64,000 bases of DNA from the NCBI GenBank assembly GCA_012845835.1, contig JABAKD010000023.1, positions 26,639,972 through 26,703,971 of the forward strand, read 5' to 3'. This document shows, in pieces, positions 1 through 64,000 of the stretch (position 1 is the stretch's first letter; each line of letters starts with the position of its first letter). Origin of the DNA: Undaria pinnatifida. Its lineage: Eukaryota; Sar; Phaeophyceae; Laminariales; Alariaceae. The position numbers and the translations under genes are program-made. The notes below the pieces were generated by a model. The model had not been told where the DNA came from, did not search any database, and saw only the letters and a list, made by a program, of their open reading frames with translations.

Positions 1-23
1 TTCGTACGAGTTTCCGCCAGCGA

Positions 24-390: not shown

Positions 391-394
391 CAAA

Positions 395-850
395 GTGATG
401 TTATTCTGGCAGCCCCCATCCTATTTTCCACCGTGGTCCCCTTCGTCGTTTGCCGTGGACGACGTACCATATTCTTGCGCGGAGCAGTACATGATGGCCG
501 AAAAGACCAAGTTTTTGCAAGACCATCGAGCAGTGGGGCTCATTATGTCGTCGCCTCGTCCAAGCATACGCAAACGCATCGGTCGAGGCGTGCGCAACTT
601 TGACTCCGCTGTTGGGGACAGGGAGAAGCAAAACGCCGTGTCGCCTGGCACCTACGCCAAATTCACGCAGAATCCAGCCATAAAAAATCGCCTTTTGAGC
701 TCTGACAACAAGCTTCTGGCTGAATCTAGCCCTCTGAACCCAGTGTGGGGCATTGGCCTCCGGGCGGATGGTCCCAGGGCCAACAACCCATGCCAGGGGA
801 GAGGAAAAACTTGCTCGGTGAGGCACTTTCTGCCGTTCGCGCAGCTATTT
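395..850 (+). pseudogene. NADAR-like domain of retrotransposon copy A
   Basis: The translated stretch has the NADAR/YbiA family signature: an FWQPPSYF start, an 'SPSSFAVDDVPYSCAEQYMM' block, a GRGVRNFD block, a 'YAKFTQNP' block, and the terminal WGIGLRADGPRA motif. Family members act on N-glycosidic and ADP-ribose-linked nucleotide substrates. The stretch lies in frame with the retrotransposon's linker and sits upstream of the integrase region, at the same place as in copies B, C, D and E. It is part of a fossil element and is probably not active here. The domain assignment is by motif recognition only. Confidence 0.8.
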
Positions 851-16995: not shown

Positions 16996-18299
16996 AATCT
17001 ACAGCGGGGGTGCATTACCCGTTGTTATCGCTGTTCGTCGCCGCGTCGTCGATGACGGAGGGGCTGGAGTGCCAAGCATGGCGGAGACGGACACAGTCGA
17101 ACCGGTGGTCGCGGCAGGGGCCGTCTCCTGTAAAGAACTCCGGGAAAGATAAGTCGGCTGTGCGATGGGCGTCGCTGCAGCCAGGGCTTCTGCGGAGCCC
17201 GTGCCGCCCTCGATGGGTATGGCAAAAACCGAAGCGAAAACAGTGTCGGCGGCAGGTGAAATCGACCCGCGGCCGGTACAGCCTTCGGTAGTGGCGACGG
17301 AGGTAGAAACACGAGCGACGAATCTCCCCGGGGAAACAGAAAGGCCGTCAATCCTTATACGTGGCTCGTGTGTGCGAAAATCGTGAAACGCGGTAGAGGT
17401 GAGAGGGAGCCCACCCAAGGCAGCATGTTCAGTGCGGGGCACGAGCCCACCCAAGACAGTGCTTTCGGCGAGGGGTTCGAGTCCACCCAAAGCAGTGCTT
17501 CGGTGTGGGGTACGAGCCCACCCAAGACAGTGCTTTTGGCGAGGGGCGCGAGTCCACCAAAACCGACTCCTGGGATCTGTGAGGAGGGAGCGCGCAGCCC
17601 ACGGGTCCGTAGGAGGTAGATACCGCTATCTCCAACGGGGTTGGTGCTTGTCAACCCCACGAGGTTGAATTTTTTCAAGCCACTGCGGTCGTACTCCGTA
17701 GCGGGCTCTGGAAAACGGGCCGGAGAAATCGGCGATGCCCTTGGCGCTGCCTTTGCGGTACTCGAGTGTGCAATCGAACGCGGTGACGAACTCAAGCTAC
17801 CGCTGGACTCGTGCATTGAGGGTCCCCACTTTGCCAATGCTCTCCTGTGTCTTGTGGCCGGAGGATATGCGGAACTTTGTTCCCCTCAGTATCCTCGGAG
17901 GCGTTTGGGAACGCAAGCAAAGCTGCCGGTCCCCAAATCTATAGGAGTCCAGTGCCTCTCCGAGTCGAGCGTTGCTCGACTGATATACGCGATTTTCATA
18001 GTGAACAAAACGTCGTCCAGCGTCACAGTACTCTCGACGAAACAGGGGCAGTGTTCTGACATTGCAAGGTCAGGGCCGACGCTAAAAGCTATCTCCACAA
18101 CTTCACGGCTTTTCATTGGCCAACGCGCCCGAGATATAGGTCGGAAACGCCGAAGGGGAAGCTTTGCGAGCGCTGGCCGCTCTGAACGGTCCGGTTGCGG
18201 CGCGGACGAGATTTCTTGGTTCTTGCACTCGCAGTGCAGGTGCGGAACCGACTAGGGGAGGCCGGGTGCGCCGACCCGGTCTCATTGTCGCAAATAGCT

Positions 18300-18750
18300 G
18301 CGCGAACGGCAGAAAGTGCCTCACCGAGAAAGTTTTTTCCTCTCCCCTGGTATGGGTTTTTGGCCCTGGGACCATCCGCCCGGAGGCCAATGCCCCACAC
18401 TGGGTTCAGAGGGCTGGATTCAGCCAGAAGCTTGTTGTCAGAGCTCAAAAGGGGATTTGTTTATGGCTGGATTCTGCGTGAATTTGGCGTAGGTGCCAGG
18501 CGACACGGCGTTTTGCTTCTCCCTGTCCCCAACAGCGGAGTCAAAGTTGCGCACGCCTCGACCGATGCGTTTGCGTATGCTTGGGCGAGGCGACGACAAA
18601 ATGAGCCCCACTGCTCGATGGTCTTGCAAAAACTTGGTCTTTTCGGCCATCATGTCCTGCTCCGCGCAAGAATATGGTACGTCGTCCACGGCAAACGACG
18701 AAGGGGACCACGGTGGAAAATAGGATGGGGGCTGCCAGAATAACACCACT
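18300..18750 (-). pseudogene. NADAR-like domain of copy B
   Basis: The same signature blocks as copy A are seen on the minus strand: VVLFWQPPSYF, VPYSCAEQ, GRGVRNFD, YAKFTQNP and WGIGLRADGP. It lies between the tandem-repeat linker and the RNase H-like remnant. It is a fossil part and I make no claim of activity. Confidence 0.78.
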
Positions 18751-18789
18751 TTGGCTGTGGAGTACATGAGAGAGGGGTCAAAATCCGTG

Positions 18790-20548: not shown

Positions 20549-21046
20549 GGTGTTCCCAGAAGGGGACATTGCAGACCCAAATGCCCAACGAGGCTACCGA
20601 CGGGTTGGCACCGTCGGTGTTGGACTCTTTTTCGGGTGCAGCGAGGGCGGCTTCCTACGAGTTTCCGCCAGCGAGTGAGGAGGACCCGAGGCAAGAAACC
20701 CCAGGTTCGGACTCGCATGTTGCTCCCGAGGCCTGGTGCTCCCGCAAGGGGACATTACAGGCCCAAATAGCCGAGGACTGGTGTTCCCAGAAGGGGACAT
20801 TGCAAACCCACAAATGTCCAACGAGGCTACCCACGGGTTGGCACCGTCGGTTTTTGCCATTTTCCGGGCGCAGTTAGAGCGGATTCTCGCGCTTTTCCGC
20901 CAACGAACGATGAAAGACCCGAGGCGAAATACCACGGGTTCGGATTCGCGTCGTGCTCCCGAGGCCTGGTGTTCCCGGACGGGAACATTGCAGCCCAAAT
21001 TTCAACACGGATTTTGACCCTTCTCTCGAATACTCCACAGCCAAAG

Positions 21047-21500
21047 TGGTGTTATTCTGGCAGCCCCCATCCTATTTCCCACCGTGGTCTCCTTCGTCGT
21101 TTGCCGTGGACGACGTACCATATTCTTGCGCGGAGCAGTACATGATGGCCGAAAATACCAAGTTTTTGCAAGACCATCGAGCAGTGGGGCTCATTATGTC
21201 GTCGTCTCGTCCAAGCATACGAAAACGCATCGGTCGAGGCGTGCGCAACTTTGACTCCGCTGTTGGGGACAGGGAGAAGCAAAACGCCGTGTCGCCTGGC
21301 ACCTACGCCAAATTCACGCAGAATCCAGCCATAAAAAAATCACCTTTTGAGCTCTGACAACAAGCTTCTGGCTGAATCCAGCCCTCTGAACCCAGTGTGG
21401 GGCATTGGCCTCCGGGCGGATGGTCCCAGGGCCAACAACCCATGCCAGGGGAGAGGAAAAACTTGCTCGGTGAGGCACTTTCTGCCGTTCGCGCAGCTAT
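21047..21500 (+). pseudogene. NADAR-like domain of copy C
   Basis: The translated blocks VVLFWQPPSYF, VPYSCAEQYMM, GRGVRNFD, YAKFTQNP and WGIGLRADGPRA match the NADAR family. It sits in the same place in the element as in the other four copies. Confidence 0.78.
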
Positions 21501-22800
21501 TTGCGACAATGAGACCGGGTCGGCGCACCCGGCCTCCCCTAGTCGGTTCCGCACCTGCACTGCGAGTGCAAGAACCAAGAAATCTCGTCCGCGCCGCAAC
21601 CGGATCGTTAACAGCGGCCAGCGCTCGCAAAGCTTCCCCTTCGGCGTTTCCGACCTATTTCTCGAGCGCGTTGGCCACTGAAAAGCCGTGAAGTTGTGGA
21701 GATAGCTTCTAGCGTCGGCCCTGACCTTGCGATGTCAGGACACTACCCCTGTTTCGTCGAGGATACTGTGACGCTTGACGACGTTTAGTTCACTATGAAA
21801 ATCGCGTATATCAGTCGAGCAACGCTCGACTAGGAGAGGCACTGGACTCCTATAGATTTGGGGACCGGCAGCATTGCTTGGGTTCCCAAACGCCTCCGAG
21901 GATACTGAGGGGAACAAAGTTCCACATATCCTCCGGCTACAATACATAGGGGAGCATTGGCAAAGTGGGGACCCTCAATGCACGAGTCCAGCGGTAGCTT
22001 GAGTTCGTCACCGCGCTCGATTGCACACTCGAGTACCGCAAAGGCAGCGACAAGGACATCGCCGATTTTTCCGGCCCGTTTTCCAGAGCCTGCTATGGAG
22101 TACGACCGCAGTGGCTTGAAAACAATTCAACCTCGTGGGGTTGACAAGCCCCAACCCCGTTGGAGATAGCGGTATCTACCTCCTACGGACCCGCGGGCTG
22201 CGCGCTCCCCCCTCACCGATCCCCGGAGTCGGTTCGGGTGGACTCGCGCCCCTCGCCAAAAGCACTGTCTTGGGTGCGCTCGTGCCCCACACCGAAAGCA
22301 CTGCTTTGGGTGGACTCGAACCCCTCGCCGAAAGCACTGTCTTGGGTGGGCTCGTGCCCCGCACTGAACATGCTGCCTTGGGTGGGCTCCCTCTCACCTC
22401 TACCGCGTTTCACGATTTTCGCACACACGAGCCACGTATAAGGATTGACGGCCTTTCTGTTTCCCCGGGGAGATTCGTCGCTCGTGTTTCTGCCTCCGTC
22501 GCCACTACCGAAGGCTGTACCGGCCGCGGGTCGATTTCACCTGCCGCCGACACTGTTTTCGCTTCGGTTTTTGCCATACCCATCGAGGGCGGCACGGGCT
22601 CCGCAGAAGCCCTGGCTGCAGCGACGCCCATCGCACAGCCGACTTATCTATCCCGGAGTTCTTTACAGGAGACGGCCCCCGCCGCAACCACCGGTTCGAC
22701 TGTGTCCGTCTCCGCCATGCTTGGCACTCCAGCCCCTCCGTCGTCGACGACGCGCCGACGAACAGCGATAACAACGGGTAATGCACCCCCGCTGTAGATT

Positions 22801-25277
22801 ATGGATTCGGGCCCGGCGGGGCCCCTCGACCATCTTGCGGACGAAGTACAACCCCGTCACGAGTTCCACGGCCGCAAACGACCCCGTCGCCCCCGCGACC
22901 CCTGCTCTTGTCGACTCGCCGGTCCGCACGGTGCCACTACCGTCCGACCGCGACCACGCAGAGCCTATATGGGAACTCCTCTCTTACGGCTCACGCCTTC
23001 TCCTGGTGGCACGCCGGCCGCATATACAAGGGCGGGCGCCCTTCGCAACGCTGCTGAATTGCGTTTCGCTGATTCCGTCGCACGTTACTCACATGGCGAT
23101 TGGAAGCAAGAGCAGCACGCTGAGCCGACGTGCCACGCCATGATGCGTTACTTTTCTATCGGCCGGCCATCAGTCCTGCCGTCCAACTTTTTGGCCGCAC
23201 AAGCGTCCCTCCCTCTCAGACATCCAGGAGCTGGCGGGTAAGGGTCGACTACATACAACCGACGACGACATCGTCCTACTCGTCCGTAACCCAACACTGC
23301 CGCCAACAAGCTCTGACAAACCGAACTCTGTGGGGCGAGCTGCTTGCTTGCTAAACGACGAGCCAGTTTGCAACTACGTTCCCCTGCTCATGCGCCCTTG
23401 GATCATGCAAGCTTGCCCCTCGACGGCCTCCTGCCACCTTGGCACCACGCGCACGTTACGCATGCTGGAGCGTTTTTATTGGTGGATTGGCATGAGTGTG
23501 TGCACCCGGTGGTGGCTTCGCCACTGCTTGAAGTGCCAAGCGCGGAAAACCCCACGGCTGACTGTCCACTGGCCCATCATCACAATGCCTCTGCCGGAAG
23601 GTCCAGGTATCGCCGTCAGTGTTCTACTTCGGCCCCCTTCCGGTCACACCACGAGACAACACCTACATCCTGCTGTTCACCCATCGCTTCAGTCGTCGGG
23701 CCGACATGTTCCCCGTCACTGCCGCTGAGTTCACCGCGGAAGGTACAGCCAATATCCTGGTGAACCAATACATCCCCTTGTGGGGGTGCCCGCGCACCAT
23801 ACTCTCGGACAACGGACTGCAGTTCTGCTCCAAGCTTTCACAAGCTGTATATCAGCTGTTGGGTGTACACAAGCTTGCTACAAGCTCCTATCATCCCAAC
23901 TGTAACGGGGGCGTTGAGTGGTTAAGTCACACTATAACACAAATGCTGGCTATGGTCATCAACGAGCGACAAGACGATTGGGACGTGCATCTGCCCCACG
24001 TAGAATTCGCTTACAACAACTCTGTCAGCGCGGGGACGGGTTTGGCGCCCAACGAGGTCCACATGGGCAGACTCCCACGGCTCCCCCTGACGGTTTTCGA
24101 CCGCATAGATGTCGTGGGACACCAGAGTCTGGCCCGTGACCACCTGGCCTATTGCGATTTGGCCACCGACCGGCAAAAGCGCGCGAACGACATTGTCCGC
24201 GCACACCACGCCCTCACCGTTTCCCGTGTTAACCGCAGAAACTCCGCCCTCGCCGACGCGCTGCGTCCAGCACCTAACTTCACTGTGGGTGGTTGGGCAT
24301 GGGTATACAATTCTGTCTCTACCATCCGCCAGGGTGTGAAGGCGAACACCGACGCCAAGGTACTCAAGGCCAAACTCGCGCTTAACTGGACGGGCCCATA
24401 CAAGGTCCTGGCCGTCGGTCCCTGCTCCGCCGCCGAGACCCCGGACGGCTCGCCGCTCGGGAGCAACCTCCTTTATTTGGATCTCCCTTCCGACCTGCCT
24501 GGTTCGGACGGTCGTCGGCGTGTGGCCATCGAGCGCTGCAAACCCTGTGCCAACCCCCACGACAGCGGGGACATGCCCAAATACCTACCGGCGGGGCTGA
24601 CACAGTATGTGCTCAACAAATTTTCCAAGAAGTCCCCGCCGTACCACGTCACTCAAGACGGCGTTTCGACTCCCCTCCAACGGCTGGAGATGGAGCAGAT
24701 CACTGGTCACCAGTCGGTACGGGGGCGAGGTGGCGTCATCGCGGTGCTATACAAGTCGCATTGGGCGGGACTCTCCGAACCGTCGTGGGAGCGGGAAATG
24801 GACCTTCACCTCTCCCGCTCCCACATCTTGCGTTATTGGGCCGGAACCCCGGACCAGCACCGCCAAACCAACCGCCTTTACCGCCGAATGCGGATCGGGG
24901 CGGCACAGCGTGAGCTCTCCCGCAACAACGGGGAACGTTTCCTAGCGCCGGGCTACGCCTGTGTTTCCCGCACCGATTGGCTCCGTCGCTACCACGACAC
25001 CATACTTCCTAAGGGAGCCCACTTTTGGTACAAGGGAGACGATGGTTTATGGTGGCTAGGAAAAATCAGCGCGAGCACTACCGAGGACAAGGTATACCTG
25101 GTCCGCTTTCTGGACGACCCGGGACCGATTAAACTCCCTCTTCCCCCGGCGCGCTACACGACTTCAACGGGAGCCGTACGAGGCTCTTGGTGCTTGCAAG
25201 TTCACATCGCCAGTGCGCTTCCTCGGGGAATCCAACGTAACGTAGACGAATCTCGAGGCGCGGCCGTGGCCAGTTGA
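22801..25277 (+). pseudogene. Integrase-chromodomain region, copy C
   Basis: Zinc-region residues (CLKC), the DDE core motifs (LSDNGLQF, GGVE), the chromodomain-like segment (VEQITGH-type, WEREMDLHLSRSHILRYW) and the terminal WWLGKI / VRFLDDPGPIKL domain are all visible. It is close to copy B in sequence. It is a fossil with a few breaks. Confidence 0.88.
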
Positions 25278-40832: not shown

Positions 40833-40858
40833 CTGCAAAACACATCCGCGAAAGCATC

Positions 40859-41128
40859 TGTTAAGATACGGCCTCGAAAGGCCTGTAGGTATCCGAATTT
40901 GAGATCATTTGAATGGGTTTCGTATGATAAGGTTGGCGGTTTATATTCGGGGAAGTTAGGAATTAGATCGGAGGCACGCGCCTCCGATCTCAGAAGCTAT
41001 CCCGGGCTCTGGTGGAAACGAATAAAGCTACATCTCTACGAAGGAACGAAAGTGAGTACTCTCCGAGGACCTGCTCAATTGGCAGACCTGGAGGGGGCAC
41101 TCTGTGTCCCCCACCTATTAATTTCATA
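40859..41128 (+). repeat. 5' LTR of copy D
   Basis: 270 bp from TGTTAAGATACGG to ATTTCATA. Visible signals are a TATA-like TTTATATT near 40940, a perfect 10-bp inverted repeat (GATCGGAGGC/GCCTCCGATC, loop ACGC) near 40967-40990, AATAAA at 41021-41026, and a terminal GGGGGCAC/GTGTCCCCC imperfect hairpin. The matching 3' LTR is at 55416-55685. Confidence 0.95.
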
Positions 41129-41130
41129 GG

Positions 41131-41148
41131 TGGCGTCGTCGAGCTTGA
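41131..41148 (+). promoter_or_regulatory. Candidate primer-binding site
   Basis: TGGCGTCGTCGAGC starts two bases after the 5' LTR end. TGG pairs with the CCA end of a tRNA, as in most LTR elements. The tRNA species cannot be named without the host tRNA set. Confidence 0.55.
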
Positions 41149-43124: not shown

Positions 43125-43870
43125 ACACTACTGCTGTGGGGGCAGATGCTGCCCATTTTTATACGGTTGGCTGCGCGATCCTTCACTGTGCTCCCCCCCT
43201 ACACTTCACCTAGGGTAAATGCTGCCCGTTTTGGTGCGACGAGTGTCAGCGTGTTGGGTGACCTTTCACTGTGCTCCCCCCCCTACACTACACCTAGGGT
43301 AAATGCTGCCCGTTTTGGTGCGATGAGTGTCAGCGTGTTGGGCGATCTTACACTGTGCTTCCACCCCTACACTACACCTAGGGTAAATGCTGCCCGTTTT
43401 GGTGCGATGAGTGTCAGCGTGTTGGGCGATCTTACACTGTGCTTCCGCCCCTACACTACACCTAGGGTAAATGTTGCCTGTTTTGGTGCGACGAGTGTCA
43501 GCGTGTTGGGTGACCTTTCACTGTGCTCCCCCCCTACACTACACCTAGGGTAAATGCTGCCCGTTTTGGTGCGCTGAGTGTCAGCGTGTTGGGCGATCTT
43601 ACACTGTGCTCCACCCCTACACTACACCTAGGGTAAATGCTGCCTGTTTTGGTGCGATGAGCGTCGGCGTGTTGGGCGAACCTTTTTTGTGATAACCCCT
43701 ACACTACACCTAGGGTAAATGCTGCCCGTTTTGGTCCGATGAGCGTGGGCGTTTTGGGCGACGCTCTCCTGTGCTACCTCTCCCCGCCTAGGTCGAATGA
43801 TGCCTGTTTAAGTGCGATGGCTGCAGACGTACCCTTACTGTGTTACACCCCCTGCACTGCGGTTGGGGTC
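43125..43870 (+). repeat. About 84-bp tandem array in the leader of copy D
   Basis: 'acacctagggtaaatgctgc' recurs at about 43206, 43290, 43374, 43458, 43541, 43624 and 43706, spaced 82-85 bp, with decayed units on both sides. Each unit holds a CCTAGG palindrome and a 'gtgtcagcgtgttgggcga' core. The end of the unit ('cactacacctagg') appears again at 44170, just before the gag ATG. Position in the 5' leader suggests a role in RNA packaging, translation or transcription, but that is inference. Confidence 0.88.
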
Positions 43871-44187
43871 AGTGCTGCCCAGTTTTGGCTCCTTGTACTG
43901 CGGTTCGTGCGGGCGTTGCCCATATACCCTACGGTCAGACTGGGCGCTGCTCTTATGTTGCGGTTATGATGATTGGTACCTTGTTACTGCTGTACTCCTC
44001 TTATACGGCTAGTTGACGTGGCTGCTACCATCCCTAAGGCTGGACGGCGTTAAGGCCCATATTGTTGCTGTTTGCTGAAACACAGATATACCGCTCCTTG
44101 GAGCAGGAACACCACAACAATTTATCTGTCTCCATAGCTTCTTCACGCGTCGTTCCTATCCCCCCCCCTTCACTACACCTAGGCACC

Positions 44188-47140
44188 ATGTCCACCAGTG
44201 ACGATGGGGGCTACTCGGGCAGGCTGCGGTCTTCCACGCGCCCCATCCAGGAGGCCCAGGGAGAAGGACGGGAACGCTGGAGGTCCCGCGAATCGAGACG
44301 AGGAGGACGCGCCGAAAACCTGGACGACGATAGTGACTCCAACACGAGTCAACAACACGGCACACCGTCTGACCATCCCGACTCGCCGGTCGACGAGGCG
44401 GAAAAACTCCTACCGGGCGCGGAGACATCACGACGACAAAAAATCCCCAGCCTCGAGGGAGCATCTCCAGCTGTCCTCAGAGCACCACCGTCGACATCTG
44501 ACCTCTCCGCGCTCGACAGAGCGCCTTCCCCAGAGCTACGGAGACCAGCGCTCCCATGCTGGCCCCTCAGATTCAGAGTCTGAAATTTCTCGGGCCCAAA
44601 GAGCTCTCGACGAAGCCAACGCGACCCTGCTTCGACGAGAGGAACGCAAACGGCTAGATGACGAACGTCGACGCCGTGAGGATCACGCCATCGACCAGGC
44701 GAGGGCCGCTGCTCGTGAGGCATCCCGCGCGGTCGAGAGGGCACGCCAAGCCGTTGCCCTCTCAGCTACATCGACTCCGGCGAGAGCTGCCCCTTCCTCG
44801 GCGCGCCCGCTGAGTGTTGCCTCCCAAGATACACGACCCGGGGACGACGTTTTCATGTCTGGCAGCGTCCAGTACATGGCTACCACGCCGAGGGTCGAGT
44901 TCTCGGCGCATCTGGCGGAGGCGGTGATAGCAGCGGCCAAGTCCCTTCTATCTTCAGAGCAACGGTCGTCGTTCAAGGCGGAAGACCTTTCGGTCGGAGC
45001 AGTCTGGGCTCGCCGGGACAACTCGTCCGCCTTCCGGCAGATGAGGCGAGCACCTACCCTCGCTTTGGTCAAAGCCTTAAGATTGGCCCACGACGACGCC
45101 CCTGACCCAGTCCTGTGGCCGACTCCAAAGGAAGCGCTGGAAGGAAGACGCTCCACCAAACAGCGGCGCGGTGGCAGCCGTGATCGGGGGGACCGCAACC
45201 GTGGAGGTGGCAACTCCGGGGGTGGTGGCGGCCAGAGTGGGGGAAACGGGGAAAACGGTGGGAGTGGTGGCCACCACAACCGCCGCGGTGGTGGCAACGG
45301 TGGCGAAAGCGCGGGAGGAGCGTCGGGCACGGGTGATGGCCCACAGCGCCGCCAAGGGAGCAACCAGGCCCGAACCAACCGGGGCGGCGGTCGCAGCTCG
45401 GGAGGAGGCACCGGAGGACGGCGAAACAGCACACGAGGGCCCTCAGCGTGGGACGAGTCGTCAACGTCCTCCCGCTCGTCTTCGAGCTCGAACACGGACG
45501 ACGGCGAGGTGACCGTGGTAGCTGGCAGGAGGCAAGTAACTCCTTCCCTGGTGGATATTGCCTCGTCCGCCGACCGGCTGAGCAAACTAACTGTGTCGGG
45601 TGACCACACCAAGCCTGTTTCTTCGGATTTGGCTCGCGAGCGTACCGCCGAACTTGCTACCGCCGCGGCTCTAGCTAAATCCACGCTCGATGACTCGGTT
45701 AGGCGCGCCTATGTTAAGCTCTCCCACAAGGACGTATCACGCATTTCTGTGCTACCGTTCCCCGCCTCTTTGAACAAGTCTGACGGCACACAGCAACTCA
45801 CACGTTCGGTTCGGTCTGCCATGACTGACATACTCATGCGCTGTGACGACCGTTGCCAAGAGGGTGTTCGTGCCCCCACGTGGGTTCCCGGTTGGATCCG
45901 CCCCCTCCGCCTGGCATTCAACCGTGCCATAACACCTGACAGGCCCACGACCGCTCGCATGACCACCTTGATCGACGATTTTTTTGGACAGGTGTCAAGA
46001 GCGTTGGACGGAGGAGCATCTGGGCCCGAGGCTTTCACCCTCCTGCTACGCCTGCTCGTGACGCACTTTGACTGGGTCGACACGGGCGAAGGCTACACTA
46101 AGTTGCACACTTTTGGAGTGTGTAACGGCACGCCTTTTTCTGATTTCAGTCGGGAGTTCCGTGTGCTAGTATCGGCAGTCACGGGGAGTGAGCGTGTTTT
46201 GTCCCCGGGGACGGATGTCGTGCTGGAGGTGGTTAGGATGGCGGTCAACGAGCAGTTTCCGACGCTCATGCCTACGTTATACCCTGGCTCGAAGGCTACG
46301 GACCCACGGCCATACGCCTCGTTAGATGCCATGTGGAAAGCGTTCAGTGACTTGGCGCACAATAAGACACCTGCCGTCAACGGCGAAAAACATTTTTCTC
46401 TACCTGTTTCTTCGACGGGATCGCGGTCATCCGCCCCGTCGGGGCCCCGGCCCGCCGTTCATGGGCGCGGCCAGGGCCGAGTGCTGTCCCAGCCGCCTTC
46501 TTGGCAGACGGGTTCGAGCAATAATCCGATTGTCATGCCGATTGTTGCTTCCACCGACCCCTGGCTCGACAAAATGTCCAACTGCTGGCCCCTAGAAGAA
46601 CAACACTATGCAGAAGTTTTCGCTGTTAGTGCCTCGTTTAAGACCGACGACCCTCCCCTCTGGAGCGGCCTCCTCACGCCCTCTGCCCGCGCCGCGGCTC
46701 TCCGAGAAAACAGGGGTCATTGCCTCAACTGTCACGAAGACACTCATTCCTTACGCAACTGTAGGCATCCCTTTATCAACGCCAGCGGCTGTCTAAACCC
46801 TGAACTTGGCCAACTTGGCGATGATGACGTTTTCCGACGGTGGCAAGCACGTATGGTTAGCTACCGCCGCGACGGACGTTCTTCTCGCTCGCAAACGTAC
46901 AACAAAAATCGCCGAAATCGTTCAAACCAATCACGAGGGTACCCACGGGATCAGGGACAGACAAACAGCCACAGCGGTAACAACAACAGCACATACACGC
47001 CTGGCCAACAAGGTGCTGTCCCGCCCTCGCCAGCCTCCTCGGCTTCCGTGTCTGCTCCGGGGAAACGTTTCGGGGCAACCCACAATCCGAGCGGAAACCC
47101 CAACGCGCGCCAACCAGGTACCTTTCGCACTGACAACTGA
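44188..47140 (+). CDS. gag: Gag polyprotein of copy D
   Basis: This capsid-nucleocapsid precursor would coat element RNA in the virus-like particle. The long frame (about 980 codons) has an N-terminal Arg/Ser-rich part, a helical charged segment (RRALDEANATLLRREERK onward, coiled-coil-like), and a 90-residue Gly/Arg-rich RGG-like tract near residues 325-415. A capsid-like helical region follows (FNRAITPDRPTTARMTTLID; FTLLLRLLVTHFDW). A CCHC zinc knuckle, CLNCHEDTHSLRNC, lies near residue 850. An ATG at 44188 opens an overlapping frame and the next usable ATG of the long frame is 44204, so the exact start is unsettled. At about 980 aa it is long for a Gypsy gag because of the Gly-rich tract. 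Pol follows in the same frame. Confidence 0.85.
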
Positions 47141-50100
47141 CAGGGCGACGGCGGTACGGCACACCCGACCCGTACGCCGACGGCACTGTCGGGGACACTT
47201 CATTTGATTTCACAAGATGCTCGTGTGCCTGTCGTTCGCCTTACACGTGGCGCGGCACAAATTACTTCTGTCAAGAGCCCAAGGGCTCCTACGTCGCCTG
47301 ATGACTTTCACGGCACAGTGCCGGCGGTGGGGACCAGGGCTCCCAGTATGCCCCCCCCCAGCCAGGCTACATTTTCTACGAAGGGGGTGCGCGCCCACAG
47401 TGACGCCCCCCTCGATCATGGTCCGAGTGCGGCAATGGGTACCAGTGCTTCCGACGCCGTTAACCCCTGCCGTGGCTCAAGCTCGACAACGGAGGCACGC
47501 GCCCCTAACGCTGCCCCCCTTAACCATGACTCAGGAGCCTGCACCTTGCACGCTCCCCTCAGGCACACGTCGCGCAGCAAGAAAACTGCGGCGACAACGC
47601 GTCGCCCCCATACGCGAGCGGGTTCGTCTCCACCTCTTCCTGACCGTAAAGCGGCGGTTGGCTTGAGGTGTGGGAAAGCCAACCCATATGCACCGAGATC
47701 TTTTCCAAGATTTGAGTCGGTGTCTCCTCGCGATAGTAGCGGGCGCTCTATCCTTTTTCCCATCAAGGAGGAGCCGACAAGCTTAGCTACCTCGTCTCTC
47801 TCCTCCAAGAGGGTTAACGGGAAGGAGCCCTCTCGGGCGATGAATTTATTTCCACTTGCCCGAGACCCGCTCTCGAAGACGCCCACAGAGTCTACGGGCC
47901 CTGCTCCGTCTTTAAGCACGCTAACCCACGTGCATCAGGCTACGTCTGCCCCAGTGGCACAGGATATAGATCCGACACTGCGCAACGGGCCAGTGGTGTC
48001 GCCACGGCCTCCAGCCCGATCAGCTGGACGCTATTCCCGTGAAGATACGGAAGCATCGCGCCTCTCGTCAAGCAGTAACAGCTCCGAGCCCCCTGTCCCT
48101 TCGGGTGCAGTGAGAGCAGTTCCTTGCGATTTTACGCCAAAGAGCGACAAGGCCACGACGCGACCACCCGTGGGTTCGGGCTCGCGCCGTGCTCCCGAGG
48201 CCGGGCGTTCTCAGACGGGGACGCTGCAGGCCCAAAGTGCCAGAGACTGGTGTCCCCAGACGGGGACATTACAAGCTCATATGCCTAACACGGCCTCCGA
48301 CGGGTTGGCACCGTCGACTTTTGACCCTTCCCTCGAATACTCTACAGACAAAGTAGTGTTGTTCTGGCAACCGCCGTCCTTTTTCTCGCAGTGGTCTCCT
48401 TCGTCGTTTGTCGTCAACGACGTCTCATATTCTTGCGCGGAGCAGTTTATGATGGCTGAAAAGGCTCGGCTTTTTAAAGACCATCGCGCAGTGGAGCTCA
48501 TCATGTCATCGTCTGACCCCAGCACACACAAACGCGTCGGTCGAGGTGTGCGCAATTTTGACGCCGCCGTTTGGGACAGGGAGAAGCAAAATGCCGTGTT
48601 ATCTGGCAACTATGCCAAATTTACGCAGAACCCAGCCATGAAAAATCACCTTTTGAGCACTGGCAACAAATTTCTGGCAGAGGCCAGTCCTCTAGACACT
48701 GTGTGGGGTATTGGTCTCCGGGCGGACGACCCCCACGCCAAGGATCCACACAAGTGGAGAGGAAAAATTTTGCTCGGTGAGGCACTCTCTGCCGTTCGCG
48801 AAGCAATTCGCGACTGCGAGGACGGATCGCCACACCCGGCCTCCCCTCGTCGATTCCGCAGGCCCACCGGGAATGCTGGAATCCATGAAATTTCGTCCGC
48901 TCAGCAGTCGCGCTTGGGGACCGCGGTCGGCGCTGCCCAAGGCCCTCATTCGGCCTATGTTTCGGGTACACCCGCCGATCAAAGCCCGGAGGTTTCGGCG
49001 GTAGCTTCTCGCGGCGCCTCAGACCGCGCACTGCCAGAACATGGCCCCTGCCTCGTTGGGGGTACCGTGACGCTGGACGACGATTCTTTCACTACCGATA
49101 TTGCAATACATAGCGGAGGGGACGCTATTGCGCCCTACATATGTACAGCGCTGCTTGACACTGGCTCCCCCCAAACCTTCATCCGTCGTGACGTGTTGGA
49201 TCGTATGCTATCGGTAGGCGCCGCCTCATCGACGTGCGAGCGGCCTAGCAGCCCTCGCTCCTGGGGTGGCTTTGGCGAATCCGCCCCTTTACGGACCGCG
49301 ACCCACATCCGTCTGAGCGTTCAATTCTTCCTCAAAAAAGAACCAACATGCTCTCTCGCGGTGTGGGCATGCGTGGTCCCTCCTTCGGTCATGCAGCACG
49401 CTGTCTTGCTGGGCCGCGACAGTTGGATGCGCTTCAACACCCGTTCGTACCGCGCCCTGCCCCCTCGTCCTCTCGATAATCGGGTTTTGGGCGAGCTGAC
49501 GTTGTCCCACCACGCCACAGCAGGCGTAGCGGCTTATGCCGTCGACCCCGCAGCATCGAACGGTGCTTTCCATCTTCGCTATGATGGCTCTACAGGCGTC
49601 ACTTTGTCGGACGAGCCCCAACTGCTCGAGGTCAACTTGGTGCGCAGTAACGGCTTTCCTGCGCTCACAGGACACTATCTTGTCGACATACTGCCGCAGC
49701 CGGATGTTCTTTCGGGACAGAAACACTTTGTTGCTTCAGGACGACAGGTGCTTCCCGTCATAGGTGTCGCGGACCTCGAGCCAGGCGACCTTATCGGGGT
49801 CGCCGACGCCCCACTTTTGCGCATCCCGCTGGGTGCCTTGCAACACCCTATCGAGGCTGCGGGTCCCCACCCTGGCCAGACTTCGTACAGCCAGGTCTCT
49901 GCGGTCGCGAGCCCGACCGGCGCGGAGGAGATAGTTCCCGCCGGACCGTCGTCCTCGCCGACGCTTATGGAACGTTTGAACCCGGTCCAACGTTCTGCAT
50001 TTCTACGCGTCTGGGCCCGACTCCCACCGCACCTGCGGGAGATTGCGTTCGGCTTACACGACCCTGGTTGGGACCCCCCGACCATTGAGCAACTGGGGGA

Positions 50101-52246
50101 TGTGCTCTGCGACTTTTCTGACGTGTTCTCCACCTCGAAGACGGACTTTGGGTCATGCTCCCTAATGCCCTTTGAAATCTCGGTTCCGGAGGGCAGCGCT
50201 CCGGTCACTTCACGGCCCCATCGCATAAACCCTATACTGGCCAGAGAAGTGGACGCGACCCTTAACCAGTACCTCGCGGCTGGGCTGATTCAGCACTCGA
50301 CCTCACCGTACTCGAGCCCGCTGGTGGTCATCCCGAAGAAATCTGGCAGTGTGAGGATCACGGTGAACTACAAGAAGCTCAACCAAATTAGCAAGCTCAG
50401 TCAACTGCCGATTCCGCGCGTGGACCAGGTCCTGGACTCCTTGGGCTCAGGTCGGGTGTTTTCCCTGTTCGACTTGGTTTCCTCGTTCCACCAGATAACG
50501 GCACACAAGGACACAGTTCCCCTTACAGCGTTCTGCACACCCACGGGCCTTTATGAGTGGCTCGTTATGCCCCAGGGCAGCAGCGCCTCGCCTGGGTGGT
50601 TCGTCAAGGTTATCAATGAGGTGATCAAGGGTTTGACACAGGTGGCAGCTTACCTCGACGATGTCATCGTGTTCGACTCCGACCCGGTAACGCATGTTCG
50701 GACGATTCGCTCTCTCTTCGAACGCCTTCGAAAGCACAATCTCAAGCTTTCCCCCTCGAAGGCGCGTTTGGGCGCTACCGATGCGAACTTTCTAGGCCAC
50801 TCCATTTCTCCAGCAGGCCTACGCCCAAATTCGGAAAAAGTGTCGGCATTGACCAATATGCCGATGCCCACTGACGTTAAGCAGGTGCGCGCACTCATGG
50901 GTGGTATCAACTATTACCGCAAATTTTTGCCCGACTTATCGAAGAGACTTCGTCCTATTAACGCACTCCTTCGAAAGGGGGTAAAGTTTGCCTTCACGCC
51001 TGATATGGAGAAGTTGGTGAGAGAAATCTTGGCGGAGCTCACGACCCCGCCGGTCCTCGTTTTCCCTTATTGGGACGCCGTCGCCGACGCCACTCGCCCG
51101 TTCCATGTGTACTGCGATGCCTGCATCGACGGGTTCGGAGCCGCTCTCGAACAGGAGCAGACGGACGGCTCCATGAAGCCCATCGCATACATCAGTCGAG
51201 CTACGCTCGACTCGGAAAGGCATTGGACTCCTCTCGATTTGGAGGCTGGCAGCATCGTCTGGGCTCTCAAGCGCCTCCGCGGCTACCTTTGGGGCACCAA
51301 GTTCCGAATATTCTCAGACCACAAGGCTCTGGAAAACATAGGCAAAGTGGGGAATCACAACGGCCGAGTCCAGAGATGGCTCGAGTTCCTCACCGCATTC
51401 GATTACACCCTCGAATACCGAAAAGGAAGCGCAAACGGCAACGCTGACTTCCTGTCTCGCTTGCCGGAGCCTGCCACGGAACACGACCGCAATGGTTCGA
51501 CGAGCCTTACCCCTGTTGAGGATCGTGGTATATACCTCATACGGGCTTGCGGGCTGTACATTCCTTCTTCTCCGATACCGGGTGTCGGCTTGGGTGGGCT
51601 AATGCCCCGCACCGAAAGTAATGCCTTGGGTGGGCTTCCTCTCACTCTTGCCGACTTTTGCGATTTTCGCACACACGGTCCACGTATGAGGCTTGACGAC
51701 CTTCCTGCTCCTTCCAGGAGATTCGTCGCTCGTGTTTCTGCATCCACCGCCACCGTCGATAGCTCGCCCGGCCGAGGCGGGGGCTCGCGTACAGCCGACT
51801 ACAATTTCGCTTCGGTTTTTGCTGTACCCATCGTGACCAACGAGGACTCCGCCGAAGCCCCGGCTACCACGACATCAGTGGCCCAACCGACTCGTTCCCG
51901 GAGCTCGGTACAAGGGACAAACCTCGTCGAGCCCAGGGGCCCGACCGCGCCCGTCCCAACCTCGCCTGGATCTCCGGCGCCCCAGACGATGACGCCCTTT
52001 TCGGACCGCATCTCCACTCGGACGCGCCGGCGTTCAGCAACAGCAGCTGGTAAGGCACCCCCTGCTGTCGACTATGGCTTCGGGCCCGGCGGGGTTCCCC
52101 AGTCATCGCCCAGACGAGTTACAACTCCGCCGCGAGCCCGACGGCCGCGGCCGGCTCCGTCAGTCGCCGCGACCCCTACTCTTGCCGACCCGCCGGCCCG
52201 CTCGGTACCACTTCCGTCCGACCACGACCACGCAGAGCCTATGTGA
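47141..52246 (+). CDS. pol: Pol polyprotein of copy D: NADAR, protease, RT, RNase H
   Basis: The frame runs on from gag in the same phase beyond gag's stop, as in retroelements that make Gag-Pol by read-through. No ATG lies near its start. Counting residues from 47204, a Ser/Pro-rich linker (1-375) is followed by a NADAR domain (about 380-545). Next come an aspartic protease with LLDTGSPQTF (about 645) and a reverse transcriptase with VIPKKSGSVRITVNYKKLNQ and the YLDDVIVFD catalytic box (about 1035-1200). RNase H follows with FHVYCDACIDGFGAAL, SDHKALENIG and GNADFLSRLP (about 1300-1425), then a linker. RT and RNase H copy element RNA into cDNA, and the protease cuts the polyprotein. Integrase follows in 52247-54563. 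A NADAR domain is not a normal part of Gypsy pol. Confidence 0.9.
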   Translation, partial: QGDGGTAHPTRTPTALSGTLHLISQDARVPVVRLTRGAAQITSVKSPRAPTSPDDFHGTVPAVGTRAPSMPPPSQATFSTKGVRAHSDAPLDHGPSAAMGTSASDAVNPCRGSSSTTEARAPNAAPLNHDSGACTLHAPLRHTSRSKKTAATTRRPHTRAGSSPPLPDRKAAVGLRCGKANPYAPRSFPRFESVSPRDSSGRSILFPIKEEPTSLATSSLSSKRVNGKEPSRAMNLFPLARDPLSKTPTESTGPAPSLSTLTHVHQATSAPVAQDIDPTLRNGPVVSPRPPARSAGRYSREDTEASRLSSSSNSSEPPVPSGAVRAVPCDFTPKSDKATTRPPVGSGSRRAPEAGRSQTGTLQAQSARDWCPQTGTLQAHMPNTASDGLAPSTFDPSLEYSTDKVVLFWQPPSFFSQWSPSSFVVNDVSYSCAEQFMMAEKARLFKDHRAVELIMSSSDPSTHKRVGRGVRNFDAAVWDREKQNAVLSGNYAKFTQNPAMKNHLLSTGNKFLAEASPLDTVWGIGLRADDPHAKDPHKWRGKILLGEALSAVREAIRDCEDGSPHPASPRRFRRPTGNAGIHEISSAQQSRLGTAVGAAQGPHSAYVSGTPADQSPEVSAVASRGASDRALPEHGPCLVGGTVTLDDDSFTTDIAIHSGGDAIAPYICTALLDTGSPQTFIRRDVLDRMLSVGAASSTCERPSSPRSWGGFGESAPLRTATHIRLSVQFFLKKEPTCSLAVWACVVPPSVMQHAVLLGRDSWMRFNTRSYRALPPRPLDNRVLGELTLSHHATAGVAAYAVDPAASNGAFHLRYDGSTGVTLSDEPQLLEVNLVRSNGFPALTGHYLVDILPQPDVLSGQKHFVASGRQVLPVIGVADLEPGDLIGVADAPLLRIPLGALQHPIEAAGPHPGQTSYSQVSAVASPTGAEEIVPAGPSSSPTLMERLNPVQRSAFLRVWARLPPHLREIAFGLHDPGWDPPTIEQLGDVLCDFSDVFSTSKTDFGSCSLMPFEISVPEGSAPVTSRPHRINPILAREVDATLNQYLAAGLIQHSTSPYSSPLVVIPKKSGSVRITVNYKKLNQISKLSQLPIPRVDQVLDSLGSGRVFSLFDLVSSFHQITAHKDTVPLTAFCTPTGLYEWLVMPQGSSASPGWFVKVINEVIKGLTQVAAYLDDVIVFDSDPVTHVRTIRSLFERLRKHNLKLSPSKARLGATDANFLGHSISPAGLRPNSEKVSALTNMPMPTDVKQVRALMGGINYYRKFLPDLSKRLRPINALLRKGVKFAFTPDMEKLVREILAELTTPPVLVFPYWDAVADATRPFHVYCDACIDGFGAALEQEQTDGSMKPIAYISRATLDSERHWTPLDLEAGSIVWALKRLRGYLWGTKFRIFSDHKALENIGKVGNHNGRVQRWLEFLTAFDYTLEYRKGSANGNADFLSRLPEPATEHDRNGSTSLTPVEDRGIYLIRACGLYIPSSPIPGVGLGGLMPRTESNALGGLPLTLADFCDFRTHGPRMRLDDLPAPSRRFVARVSASTATVDSSPGRGGGSRTADYNFASVFAVPIVTNEDSAEAPATTTSVAQPTRSRSSVQGTNLVEPRGPTAPVPTSPGSPAPQTMTPFSDRISTRTRRRSATAAGKAPPAVDYGFGPGGVPQSSPRRVTTPPRARRPRPAPSVAATPTLADPPARSVPLPSDHDHAEPM
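48350..48828 (+). other. NADAR (YbiA/DUF1768-like) domain inside pol of copy D
   Basis: About 160 residues with the full set of family blocks: FWQPPSFFSQWSPSSF, VSYSCAEQFMMAEKARLF, GRGVRNFDAAVWDREKQNAV, GNYAKFTQNP, LAEASPLDTVWGIGLRADDP and WRGKILLGEALSAVREAI. The length and block order match bacterial and eukaryotic NADAR proteins. The family cleaves N-glycosidic bonds in riboflavin-pathway intermediates (YbiA) and, in several members, removes ADP-ribose from guanine in nucleic acid. The domain is in frame between the pol N-terminal linker and the protease. It is the best preserved of the five in this window. Domain identity is strong by eye, but its function in the element is inference. Confidence 0.9.
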
Positions 52247-54563
52247 ACTCCGCTCCTACGGCTTACGCCTCCTCCTGGTGAAACGCCGGCTACACTTACA
52301 AGGTCGGATGCCCTCGGCGACGCTGCTGAGCTGCGATTCGCGGATTCCGTCGCGCGTTATTCACATGCCGATTGGAAGCGCGAACAACACGCAGAGCCGA
52401 CGTGCCACGCCACGATACGTTACATCTCTATCGGCCGGCCGTCGGCCCTGCCACCGGACTTCTTGGCATGCTACCCCTCGCCCAAGCGTCCCTCTCTCTC
52501 AGACATCCAGGAACTGGCGGATAAGGGTCGACTACATACAACCGACGACGACTTTGTCCTGCTCGTCCGTAAACCGACACCCCCGCAAACAAGCTCTGAC
52601 AAACCGAACTCTGTGGGGCGAGCTGCTTGCTTGCTAAACAACGAGCCAGTTCGCATCTACGATCCCCTGCTCATGCGCCCTTGGATCATGCAAGCTTGCC
52701 ACTCGACGGCCTCCTGCCACCTTGGCACCACGCGCACGTTGCGCATGCTGGAGCGTTTTTATTGGTGGATTGGCATGAGTGTGTGTACCCGGTGGTGGCT
52801 TCGCCACTGCTTGAAGTGCCAAGCGCGGAAAACCCCCACGGCTGACTGTCCGCTGGCCCATCATCACAATGCTTCTGCCGGAAGGTCCAGGTATCGCCGT
52901 CAGTGTTGACTACTTCGGCCCCCTTCCGGTTACACCGCGAGGCAACACCTACATCCTGCTGTTCACCGATGGCTTCAGTCGTCGGGCCGACATGTTCCCC
53001 GTCACTGCCGCTGGGTTCACCGCGGAAGGTCCAGCCAATATCCTGGTGAACCAATACATCCCCTTGTGGGGGTGCCCGCGCACCATACTCTCGGACAACG
53101 GACTGCAGTTCTGCTCCAAGCTTTCACAAGCTGAATATCAGCTGTTAGGTGTACACAAGCTTGCTACAAGCTCCTACCATCCCAACTGTAACGGGGGCGT
53201 TGAGCGGGTAAATCACACTATGACACAAATGCTGGCTATGGTCGTCAACGAGCGACAAGACGACTGGGACTTGCATCTGCCCCACGTCGACTTCGCTTAC
53301 AACAACTCTGTCAGCGCGGCGACGGGTTTGGCGCCCGACGAGGTCCACATGGGCAGACTCCCACGGCTCCCCCTGACGATTTTCGACCGCAAAGGTGTCG
53401 TGGGACACCAGAGTTTGGCCCGTGACCACCTGACCTATTGCGATTTGGCCACCGACCGGCAAAAGCGCGCGAACGACATTGTCCGCGCACACCACGCCCT
53501 CACCGTTTCCCGTGTTAACCGCAGAAACTCCGCCCTCGCCGACGCGCTGCGTCCAGCACCTAACTTCACTGTGGGTGGTTGGGCATTGGTATACAATTCT
53601 GCCTCTACCATCCGCCAGGGTGTGAAAGCGGATACCGACGCCAAGGTACTCAAGGCCAAACTCGCGCTTAACTGGACGGGCCCATACAAGGTCCTGGCCG
53701 TCGGTCCCTGCTCCGCCGCCGAGACCCCGGACGGCTCGCCGCTCGGGAGCAACCTCCTTTATTTGGATCTCCCTTCCGACCTGCCTGGTTCGGACGCTCG
53801 TCGGCGTGTGGCTATCGAGCGCTGCAAACCCTGTGCCAACCCCCACGACAGCGGGGACATGCCCAAATACCTACCGGCGGGGCTGACACAGTATGTGCTC
53901 AACAAATTTTCCAAGAAGTCCTCGCCGTACCACGTCACTCAAGACGACGTTTCGACTCCCCTCCAACGGCTGGAGGTGGAGCAGATCACTGGTCATTAGT
54001 CGGTACGGGGGCGAGGTGGCGTCATCGCGGTGCTATACAAGACGCATTGGGCGGGACTCTCCGAACCGTCCTGGGAGCGGGAAATGGACCTTCACCTCTC
54101 CCGCTCCCACATCTTGCGTTATTGGACCGGAACCCCGGACCAGCACCGCCAAACCAACCGCCTTTACCGCCGAATACGGATCGGGGCGGCACAGCGTGAG
54201 CTCTCCCGCAACAACGGGGAACGTTTCCTAGCGCCGGGCTACGCCTGTGTTTCCCGCACCGATTGGCTCCGTCGCTACCACGACACCATACTTCCTAAGG
54301 GAGCCCACTTTTGGTACAAGGGAGACGATGGTTTATGGTGGCTAGGAAAAATCAGCGCGAGCACTACCGAGGACAAGGTATACCTGGTCCGCTTTCTGGA
54401 CGACCCGGGACCGATTAAACTCCCTCTTCCCCCGGCGCGCTACACGACTTCAACGGGAGCCGTACGAGGCTCTTGGTGCTTGCAAGTCCACATCGCCAGT
54501 GCGTTTCCTCGGGGAATCCAACGTAACGTAGACGAATCTCGAGGCGCGACCGTGGCCAGTTGA
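52247..54563 (+). pseudogene. Integrase-chromodomain region, copy D
   Basis: Shows the zinc-region CHSTASCHLG and CLKC, DDE-core motifs VDYFGP, LSDNGLQF and GGVERVNH, the integrase C-terminal fold, a chromodomain-like segment and the terminal FWYKGDDGLWWLGKI / VRFLDDPGPIKL domain. It would insert cDNA into chromatin. The region is disturbed by a few breaks in this copy. It is very close in sequence to copies A, B, C and E. Confidence 0.88.
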
Positions 54564-55415: not shown

Positions 55416-55685
55416 TGTTAAGATACGGCCTCGAAAGGCCTGTAGGTATCCGAATTTGAGATCATTTGGATGGGTTTCGTATGATAAGGTTGGCGGTTTA
55501 TATTCGGGGAAGTTAGGAATTAGATCGGAGGCACGCGCCTCCGATCTCAGAAGCTATCCCGGGCTCTGGTGGAAACGAATAAAGCTACATCTCTACGAAG
55601 GAACGAAAGTGAGTACTCTCCGAAGACCTGCTCAATTGGCAGACCTGCAGGGGGCACTCTGTGTCCCCCACCTATTAATTTCACA
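55416..55685 (+). repeat. 3' LTR of copy D
   Basis: 270 bp from TGTTAAGATACGG to TTTCACA, about 99% identical to the 5' LTR. Carries the same TATA-like box, 10-bp hairpin and AATAAA. Followed by CATC, matching the 4 bp before the 5' LTR. Confidence 0.95.
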
Positions 55686-55761
55686 CATCATCAAAAAAAG
55701 CAGCAGAAGATATGTGAGAAGAAATTGTTGGGACCACACTACTCCCAAATAAAACAGCACC

Positions 55762-63439: not shown

Positions 63440-63904
63440 TGTCGCAAATAGCCGCGCGAACGGCAGAAAGTGCCTCACCGAGCAAGTTTTTCCTCTCCCC
63501 TGGCATGGGTTGTTGGCCCTGGGACCATCCGCCCGGAGACCCATGCCCCACACTGGGTTCAGAGGGCTGGATACAGCCAAAAGCTTGTTGTCAGAGCTCA
63601 AATGGTATTTTTTTGTTATGGCTGGATTCTGCGTGAATTTGGCGTAGGTGCCAGGTGACACGGCGTTTTGCTTCTCCCTGTCCCCAACAGCGGAGTCAAA
63701 GTTGCGCACGCCTCGACCGATGCGTTTGCGTGTGCTTGGACGAGGCGACGACATAATGAGCCCCACTGCTCGATGGTCTTGCAAAAACTTGGTCTTTTCG
63801 GTCATCATGTACTGCTCCGCGCAAGAATATGGTACGTCGTCCACGGCAAACGACGAAGGAGACCACGGTGGGAAATAGGATGGGGACTGCCAGAATAACA
63901 CCAC
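63440..63904 (-). pseudogene. NADAR-like domain of copy E
   Basis: Minus-strand translation shows VVLFWQSPSYF, VPYSCAEQYMM, GRGVRNFD, YAKFTQNP and a WGMGLRADGPRA block. Position in the element is the same as in the other copies. Confidence 0.76.
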
Positions 63905-64000
63905 TTTGGCTGTGGAGTATTCGAGAGAAGGGTCAAAATCCGTGTTGAAATTGGGCCTGTAATGTCCCCGTCCAGGAACATCAGGCCTCGGGAGCACGAC

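What the first reader, a model, noticed from the sequence alone, without database searches (positions are those of the whole stretch)
48350..48828. NADAR domain captured in the pol polyprotein of a Ty3/Gypsy retrotransposon
Seen directly: all NADAR/YbiA signature blocks lie in one open frame with the DTG protease, RT (YLDD) and RNase H of copy D, about 100 residues upstream of the protease. From known biology: NADAR proteins cleave N-glycosidic bonds, and several members reverse guanine ADP-ribosylation; some act as antitoxins to DarT-like ADP-ribosyltransferases. Inference: the element may use it to strip ADP-ribose from its RNA, cDNA or integration intermediates, which would be a counter-defence enzyme in an LTR retrotransposon. 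I do not recall such a fusion as a standard Gypsy feature, but cannot check the literature.
Basis: partly seen in the sequence, partly recalled or inferred. Interest (0 to 1): 0.93.

Follow-up and report, generated by a model that had tools for sequence, protein, structure and literature searches.

The report
NADAR enzyme inside a Gypsy retrotransposon
A virus-like jumping gene, in what is probably a brown-algal genome, carries a well-preserved enzyme domain that in other organisms removes ADP-ribose from DNA; the combination is real and ancient, but it was already reported in 2025 from the brown alga Ectocarpus.

Summary
Pfam NADAR (PF08719, E 1.2e-47) lies at window 48362-48811 in one open frame with the protease DTG motif, reverse transcriptase and RNase H of copy D, an LTR insertion flanked by a 4-bp duplication. 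It is no misassembly: all 150 scored NADAR places in this 511-Mb genome pass the cut-off. Among 120 related pol proteins, NADAR occurs in 25 of 51 with RT identity above 44% and 0 of 69 below. The modelled fold matches Phytophthora NADAR with ADP-ribose and E. coli YbiA; seven pocket residues are intact in 18 of 20 element rows. Four RT-deleted copies in the window lost pocket residues. The fusion is already published for one Ectocarpus Gypsy lineage (PMC12477816), so this is a new member of a known kind. Added here: stand-alone brown-algal NADARs are close kin; one in-frame UGA separates gag and pol; a Tudor-like block follows the chromodomain. Removal of ADP-ribose from element nucleic acid is the best mechanism but unproven; no DarT was found in the host genome.

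The parts
40859..41128 (+). 5' LTR of copy D (4 mismatches of 270 to the 3' LTR; reads CATA at its end where the 3' LTR reads CACA)
55416..55685 (+). 3' LTR of copy D; the element is flanked by CATC at 40855-40858 and 55686-55689 (4-bp target-site duplication)
44183..47140 (+). gag-like ORF, 985 aa, with a CCHC knuckle at 46721-46762; ends in TGA 47138-47140
   Evidence: no Pfam match
47138..47140 (+). single in-frame UGA between gag and pol (AAC TGA CAG), candidate readthrough stop
   Evidence: UGA at this place in D and 9 of 10 other copies
47141..52246 (+). pol open frame of copy D, 1,701 aa, closed by TGA 52244-52246
48362..48811 (+). NADAR domain
   Evidence: Pfam PF08719 E 1.2e-47; model pLDDT 93.7, fold matches 8bau and 2b3w
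49157..49165 (+). protease DTG motif
50330..50806 (+). reverse transcriptase RVT_1 with YLDD at 50651
51086..51400 (+). RNase H (RT_RNaseH)
52673..52834 (+). integrase H2C2 zinc finger (after the premature stop, same frame as pol)
52887..53177 (+). integrase core (rve, 27.2 bits, below the Pfam cut-off of 32.6), in another frame: copy D is frame-shifted
392..808 (+). NADAR remnant in deletion derivative A (W89G, D130N)
18275..18752 (-). NADAR remnant in deletion derivative B (W89G, D130N, frame break)
21043..21519 (+). NADAR remnant in deletion derivative C (W89G, two stops)
63485..63907 (-). NADAR remnant in deletion derivative E (W89G, E125V, D130N)
24672..24854 (+). chromodomain-fold block at the pol C-terminus, read in copy C
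25020..25205 (+). Tudor-like block after the chromodomain, read in copy C
   Evidence: weak by sequence, below cut-offs; Foldseek top PHF19/PHF1 Tudor, prob 1.00, E 0.01

Best explanation
A lineage of chromodomain Ty3/Gypsy elements acquired a YbiA-type NADAR domain and kept it as the first recognisable domain of Pol, between gag and protease. Shown here by sequence, modelled fold and conservation: the domain is real, in frame, kept across element families and organisms, and has an intact ADP-ribose pocket. Inferred: NADAR is made only as Gag-Pol by readthrough of the UGA, travels in the particle and is freed by the protease. Inferred: it hydrolyses the N-glycosidic bond of ADP-ribosylated guanine (or a close ADP-ribose adduct) on the element's RNA or cDNA, so that reverse transcription or integration is not blocked. 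That would be nucleic-acid clean-up or counter-defence, comparable in position and logic to the dUTPase of some retroviruses (recalled).
For: Pfam and in-frame position. LTRs and target-site duplication. All 150 scored places above the cut-off, of 1,454 first-look candidates. NADAR confined to one RT lineage among the 120 proteins examined: 25 of 51 above 44% RT identity, 0 of 69 below. Of the 18 rows with at least 640 residues before RT (a limit set after seeing the data), 15 have NADAR, one of them partial. Residues E43, K50, R79, W89, E125, D130 and W133 (numbering and roles from passages of PMC11543638) are all intact in 18 of 20 element rows and in 24 of 30 copies of this genome. Model pLDDT 93.7; best fold matches are NADAR with ADP-ribose 8bau (TM 0.83) and YbiA 2b3w (0.81). 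NADAR dN/dS 0.19 for the one pair with dS above 0.2, although one member of it has itself lost E125. All four RT-deleted copies of the window lost W89. UGA between gag and pol in one frame in 9 of 10 copies and D. Oomycete and E. coli NADARs hydrolyse guanine-ADP-ribose (PMC11543638, PMC11125620, passages).
Against: No activity, expression, readthrough or packaging was tested. No host enzyme that ADP-ribosylates guanine is known here: DarT gave 0 matches, PARP one exon; the macrodomain query did not complete. Evidence for selection is thin: other within-family pairs give dN/dS from 0 to about 0.6 on few changes, one decayed copy gives 1.4, and family 1 against family 2 is saturated. In four of the ten copies no CCHC knuckle and in several only a short stretch of the gag frame was found upstream of the stop. 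R93 is K in D and C30a and C in four other element rows. Family 2 NADAR has diverged far more (46-48% identity) than its RT (78%), so its specificity may differ. NADAR and RT identities correlate only moderately over 16 elements, Spearman 0.33, 12 of 5,000 permutations as high; 0.54 without family 2. On the RT tree the NADAR label needs 16 changes (shuffled mean 20.3), many non-carriers being too short to tell.
Confidence: 0.5

Rival explanations
1. NADAR acts on soluble ADP-ribose derivatives or damaged nucleotides (signals of host defence or by-products of RNA repair) in the cell or particle, not on nucleic acid of the element.
For: Authors of PMC9503650 prefer soluble ADP-ribose derivatives for phage NADARs and note N-glycosidase activity on riboflavin intermediates (passages). 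The pocket is intact, which fits either substrate.
Against: For RNA viruses, whose polyprotein placement is most like this one, the same paper favours macromolecular ADP-ribose. The E. coli and phage NADARs tested in PMC11125620 act on guanine-ADP-ribose in DNA.
Confidence: 0.22
2. NADAR is used as a binding module (ADP-ribose, RNA or a host protein), for instance to guide packaging or, with the chromodomain and Tudor-like block, to guide integration to ADP-ribosylated chromatin.
For: The same pol carries a chromodomain fold and a Tudor-like fold, so reader modules are favoured in this lineage. A NADAR-domain protein works in nematode spliced-leader trans-splicing (PMC9303266, search listing only).
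Against: E125 and E43, which hold the distal ribose near the catalytic centre, are kept in 20 of 20 and 19 of 20 element rows. NADAR lies at the other end of Pol from integrase.
Confidence: 0.13
3. The domain is a neutral passenger that hitch-hikes in a tolerant spacer.
For: It sits between long linkers. Six of 30 copies read have lost a pocket residue, and dN/dS of close pairs is uninformative.
Against: It is kept across RT lineages about 59% identical, with pocket residues intact in 18 of 20 rows, whereas the RT-deleted copies lost them.
Confidence: 0.08
4. Host exon joined by misassembly.
For: Stand-alone algal NADAR proteins exist.
Against: Target-site duplication and LTRs, many copies, other organisms, a published precedent.
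Confidence: 0.01

Closest known systems
Gypsy-12_Ec32 lineage of Ectocarpus sp. 7 (Genome Biol 2025;26:320, PMC12477816; section 5 part 1 and passages seen)
   Different: Another genome (511 Mb); a family 1 and a more divergent family 2; a Tudor-like block after the chromodomain, while the paper names a Tudor domain only for a different lineage (Gypsy-10); stand-alone algal NADARs found as close kin. Its supplements were not read.
Phytophthora nicotianae NADAR (8bau) and E. coli YbiA (2b3w)
   Same: Fold (TM 0.83 and 0.81); for 8bau the ADP-ribose pocket residues
   Different: Stand-alone proteins, 29% and 24% identical in the fold alignment
Stand-alone brown-algal NADARs (Ectocarpus sp. 13, E. 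fasciculatus, Scytosiphon promiscuus) and one EukProt protein
   Same: 55-57% identity; one clade with the element NADARs other than family 2 (96/80)
   Different: 209-252 aa, no pol; three of four have an N-terminal Cys-rich segment without a Pfam match
NADAR domains in RNA-virus polyproteins (nidoviruses and others; PMC9503650, passages)
   Same: Domain embedded in a polymerase polyprotein
   Different: RNA viruses, not retroelements; named RNA-virus fold matches are 20-22% identical
Tx1 LINE ORF1 NADAR of Crassostrea gigas (PMC12477816)
   Same: NADAR in a retrotransposon
   Different: Non-LTR element, ORF1; not examined here

Membership tests
NADAR / YbiA superfamily (PF08719) | Pfam model above curated cut-off | tested here: met
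   162.6 bits against 35.1
NADAR / YbiA superfamily (PF08719) | YbiA fold | tested here: met
   Model pLDDT 93.7; the only two PDB matches with E below 0.001 are NADAR 8bau and YbiA 2b3w
YbiA subfamily | Glu (not Asp or His) at the last-strand catalytic position E125 | tested here: met
   E in 20 of 20 element rows
NADAR hydrolase | Hydrolysis of guanine-linked ADP-ribose | not testable with these tools
   Needs an enzyme assay
DarT1-type toxin-antitoxin pair (DarTG1) | BC4488-type Asp and an adjacent DarT | tested here: not met
   Glu instead of Asp; no DarT match in the host genome
Ty3/Gypsy LTR retrotransposon | LTRs TG..CA with short target-site duplication | tested here: met
   LTRs 270 bp and CATC duplication in D; 4-bp duplications read by eye also at copies C18 and C22, not clear at C30a and C57. 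The 5' LTR of D ends CATA
Ty3/Gypsy LTR retrotransposon | Pol order PR-RT-RH-IN and RT closest to Ty3 | tested here: met
   Order, protease by motif only; best solved match Ty3 Gag-Pol 7q5b, E 2.7e-124, with a profile of 15 related rows
Gypsy-12_Ec32 NADAR lineage | NADAR N-terminal in Pol plus C-terminal chromodomain | tested here: met
Gypsy-12_Ec32 NADAR lineage | RT groups with Ectocarpus NADAR Gypsy elements | tested here: met
   With Ectocarpus sp. CCAP 1310/34 rows P0124 and P0135 in one RT set of 30 rows, SH-aLRT 99; Gypsy-12_Ec32 itself was not available

The most novel reading that the evidence does not exclude
A retrotransposon lineage carries its own de-ADP-ribosylase in Gag-Pol to undo a so far unseen host defence that ADP-ribosylates guanines in retroelement RNA or cDNA. 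The enzyme gene moved between element and algal host. In family 2 the same slot was refilled by a second, independent NADAR: its NADAR is 43-49% identical to each of the 15 other element NADARs compared, although its RT is 78% identical to family 1.
Probability: 0.2. Interest if true: 0.85.

Novelty: new member of a known kind. Interest (0 to 1): 0.5.

Why it matters
Nucleic-acid ADP-ribosylation is established in bacterial conflicts but its roles in eukaryotes are little known. An old, conserved, apparently intact de-ADP-ribosylase inside a retrotransposon polyprotein suggests that some algal hosts, or the element's own replication, produce such adducts. The domain is small and can be expressed alone, so the question is directly testable. 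The stand-alone algal proteins, from the same stock, offer a host-side comparison that is not discussed in the parts of the published report that I saw.

Tried and rejected
Misassembly or host exon: rejected by LTRs, target-site duplication, many copies and other organisms. DarT counterpart in the host: none found (six-frame search exon by exon, so a gene split by introns could be missed; the control rang in 1 of 14 genomes). PARP: one exon (the control rang in 0 of 14). Viral donor: 80 loci kept of 87 in IMG/VR; 20 of the 80 went into the tree and none fell in the clade of the elements. Separate origin of family 2 NADAR: suggested by its long branch outside, but holding it with the other elements is not rejected (AU p 0.761 with algal and element-like rows; 0.484 for elements plus P0115). 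Two further AU tests did not finish. Direction of transfer between element and algal gene: not resolved. The own-genome queries for a stand-alone NADAR, macrodomain and 18S did not complete. Species name: not established; RT and NADAR kin point to a brown alga, and 511 Mb equals the size of the Undaria assembly as I recall it (only a search listing was seen), which proves nothing.

Full report
Check of the observation. The open frame 47141-52246 contains Pfam NADAR at residues 408-557 (window 48362-48811, E 1.2e-47), RVT_1, RT_RNaseH and RT_RNaseH_2. The protease is seen as the motif DTG at residue 673, with YLDD at 1171; no Pfam protease family matched. The element around it is copy D, window 40859-55685. 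Its LTRs of 270 bp differ at 4 positions and are flanked by CATC on both sides. So the domain lies inside an inserted element. Copy D is not intact: pol is closed by TGA at 52244-52246, and the integrase core lies in another frame.

Copies in the same genome. A six-frame search with PF08719 scored 150 of 1,454 candidates and all 150 pass the cut-off; 9 lie in open frames of 2,473 aa and 5 in frames of 2,371 aa. Ten copies were fetched, among them 9 of these 14; all ten have an RT stretch without stops. They fall in two families, with RT 78% identical to each other and NADAR 46-48% identical. LTR pairs could be compared in five elements: 0 of 269, 0 of 267, 0 of 491 and 6 of 270 mismatches in four fetched copies, and 4 of 270 in D. 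For the other six of the ten no complete pair was defined within the fetched stretches. The three zero-mismatch pairs mean recent insertions. Four-base duplications were read by eye at C18 (CTAC) and C22 (GTAT) and were not clear at C30a and C57.

Gag and Pol. In D and in 9 of 10 fetched copies the first in-frame stop upstream of NADAR is a UGA in the same context (AAC TGA CAG in family 1, AAC TGA AGA in family 2); the tenth, decayed, copy has a TAG further in. Upstream of it the same frame stays open for 29 to 1,019 codons, and a CCHC knuckle is seen there in six of the ten copies and in D, so the gag frame is broken in some copies. This suggests, but does not prove, that Pol is made by readthrough and that NADAR exists only as part of Gag-Pol.

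Deletion derivatives. Copies A, B, C and E of the window lack the stretch between about pol residues 674 and 1344, that is the protease body, RT and the start of RNase H; the rest of RNase H is broken. In all four the NADAR remnant has W89 changed to G. D130 is N in A, B and E; E125 is V in E and a stop in C. These copies thus lost the NADAR pocket as well.

Fold and active site. By sequence the domain matches one solved chain, the NADAR entry 8bau (E 2.1e-14). The AlphaFold2 model (pLDDT 93.7, pTM 0.87) matches 8bau, NADAR of Phytophthora with ADP-ribose (TM 0.83), and YbiA 2b3w (TM 0.81); the next PDB match has E 2.4. From passages of PMC11543638 the pocket residues are E43, K50, R79, W89, R93, E125, D130 and W133; changes at the E. 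coli equivalents of E43, K50 and E125 abolish rescue of cells, though E43 to Ala has only a minor effect in vitro. Leaving out R93, which varies, all seven others are intact in 18 of 20 element rows; the exceptions are one decayed copy (W133R) and P0140 (E43D). Nine other pol proteins with a partial NADAR match were not in that count. In this genome 24 of 30 distinct copies read keep all seven, and 0 of the 4 deletion derivatives (L001-L008 overlap four of the fetched copies and are counted once; 16 of the 30 were picked by hand and include decayed ones).

Selection. For NADAR, the one pair with dS above 0.2 (0.43) gives dN/dS 0.19, but its partner copy has lost E125. Other pairs within families give 0 to about 0.6 on few changes, one decayed copy 1.4, and family 1 against family 2 is saturated. 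RT pairs within families give 0 to 0.64. Selection is therefore argued mainly from the residues, not from these ratios.

Distribution. A search with the NADAR region inside the long pol frame returned one protein of 284 candidates, P0001, a 1,323-aa NADAR-RT-RNase H protein. A search with the RT region scored 8,000 candidates, found 262 and listed 120. Of these 120, which include P0001, 51 have RT identity above 44%, and 25 of them have a NADAR match, some partial; 0 of the other 69 do. Of the 18 with at least 640 residues before RT, 15 have NADAR (one partial) and P0131, P0151 and P0155 do not (limit set after seeing the data). Named carriers are Ectocarpus sp. CCAP 1310/34. In the RT tree of 61 rows families 1 and 2 are sisters with P0122 and P0123 (SH-aLRT 95) and all carriers in the tree fall inside one clade of 50 rows (99), with non-carriers interspersed: the label needs 16 changes against a shuffled mean of 20.3. 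Many non-carriers start too close to RT to tell.

Origin. A search with the NADAR domain found 1,066 proteins, 120 listed. The best are short ENA proteins up to 90% identical, which I take for element fragments without having checked. After them come stand-alone proteins of Ectocarpus sp. 13, E. fasciculatus, Scytosiphon promiscuus and one EukProt protein, and Nannocystis (Myxococcota). In the careful tree of 65 rows, 18 of the 20 element rows form one clade with P0115 (98/90), and these with the four algal and EukProt proteins another (96/80), near Myxococcota and Planctomycetota; the two family 2 rows fall outside on a long branch. Holding all element rows together is not rejected (p 0.761 with algal and element-like rows; p 0.484 for elements with P0115). 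One capture with fast change in family 2 is therefore the simplest reading, a second capture is not excluded, and the direction between host gene and element is open. The published report suggested possible horizontal transfer from bacteria. The algal stand-alone proteins add a possible step in between.

Host side. DarT gave no match in the genome and PARP one exon. Macrodomain, stand-alone NADAR and rRNA queries did not complete.

Prior knowledge. Searches of the paper library for NADAR with retrotransposon (104 papers, 30 listed, many by surname as far as I can tell), NADAR with Ty3 and domain (one paper), YbiA with retrotransposon (one paper) and NADAR with brown alga (80 papers, 10 listed) showed one relevant paper, PMC12477816. 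[quoted passage not shown] The words readthrough, stop codon and catalytic do not occur in its main text. Its supplements were not read.

Verdict. Real, old, conserved and probably enzymatically competent; already reported in kind. The mechanism remains inferred.

Noticed in passing
window 24993-25202 (copy C) and pol C-termini of related proteins: Conserved Tudor-like block (WYK..DGLWWLGKI...RFLDDPGP) after the chromodomain; nearest folds PHF19/PHF1 Tudor, E 0.01.
   Followed up: partly
window 47138-47140: Gag and pol share one frame and are separated by a single UGA in both element families: candidate stop-codon readthrough.
   Followed up: partly
window 43192-43783: 84-bp tandem repeats in the leader between 5' LTR and gag of copy D; another copy has a longer array.
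   Followed up: no
window 1-5795, 13375-19840, 20500-26416, 58540-64000: Four copies share one internal deletion of protease, RT and the start of RNase H but keep the integrase region and an LTR: a non-autonomous derivative.
   Followed up: partly
P0086, P0116, P0117: Stand-alone brown-algal NADARs carry an N-terminal Cys-rich segment (PGCxxxC...HDxC) with no Pfam match.
   Followed up: partly
L021-L026 (family 2 copies): Family 2 NADAR is 43-49% identical to the 15 other element NADARs compared although its RT is 78% identical to family 1: replacement or burst of change.
   Followed up: partly
about window 19900-20700: A masked stretch reads as N between copies B and C.
   Followed up: no
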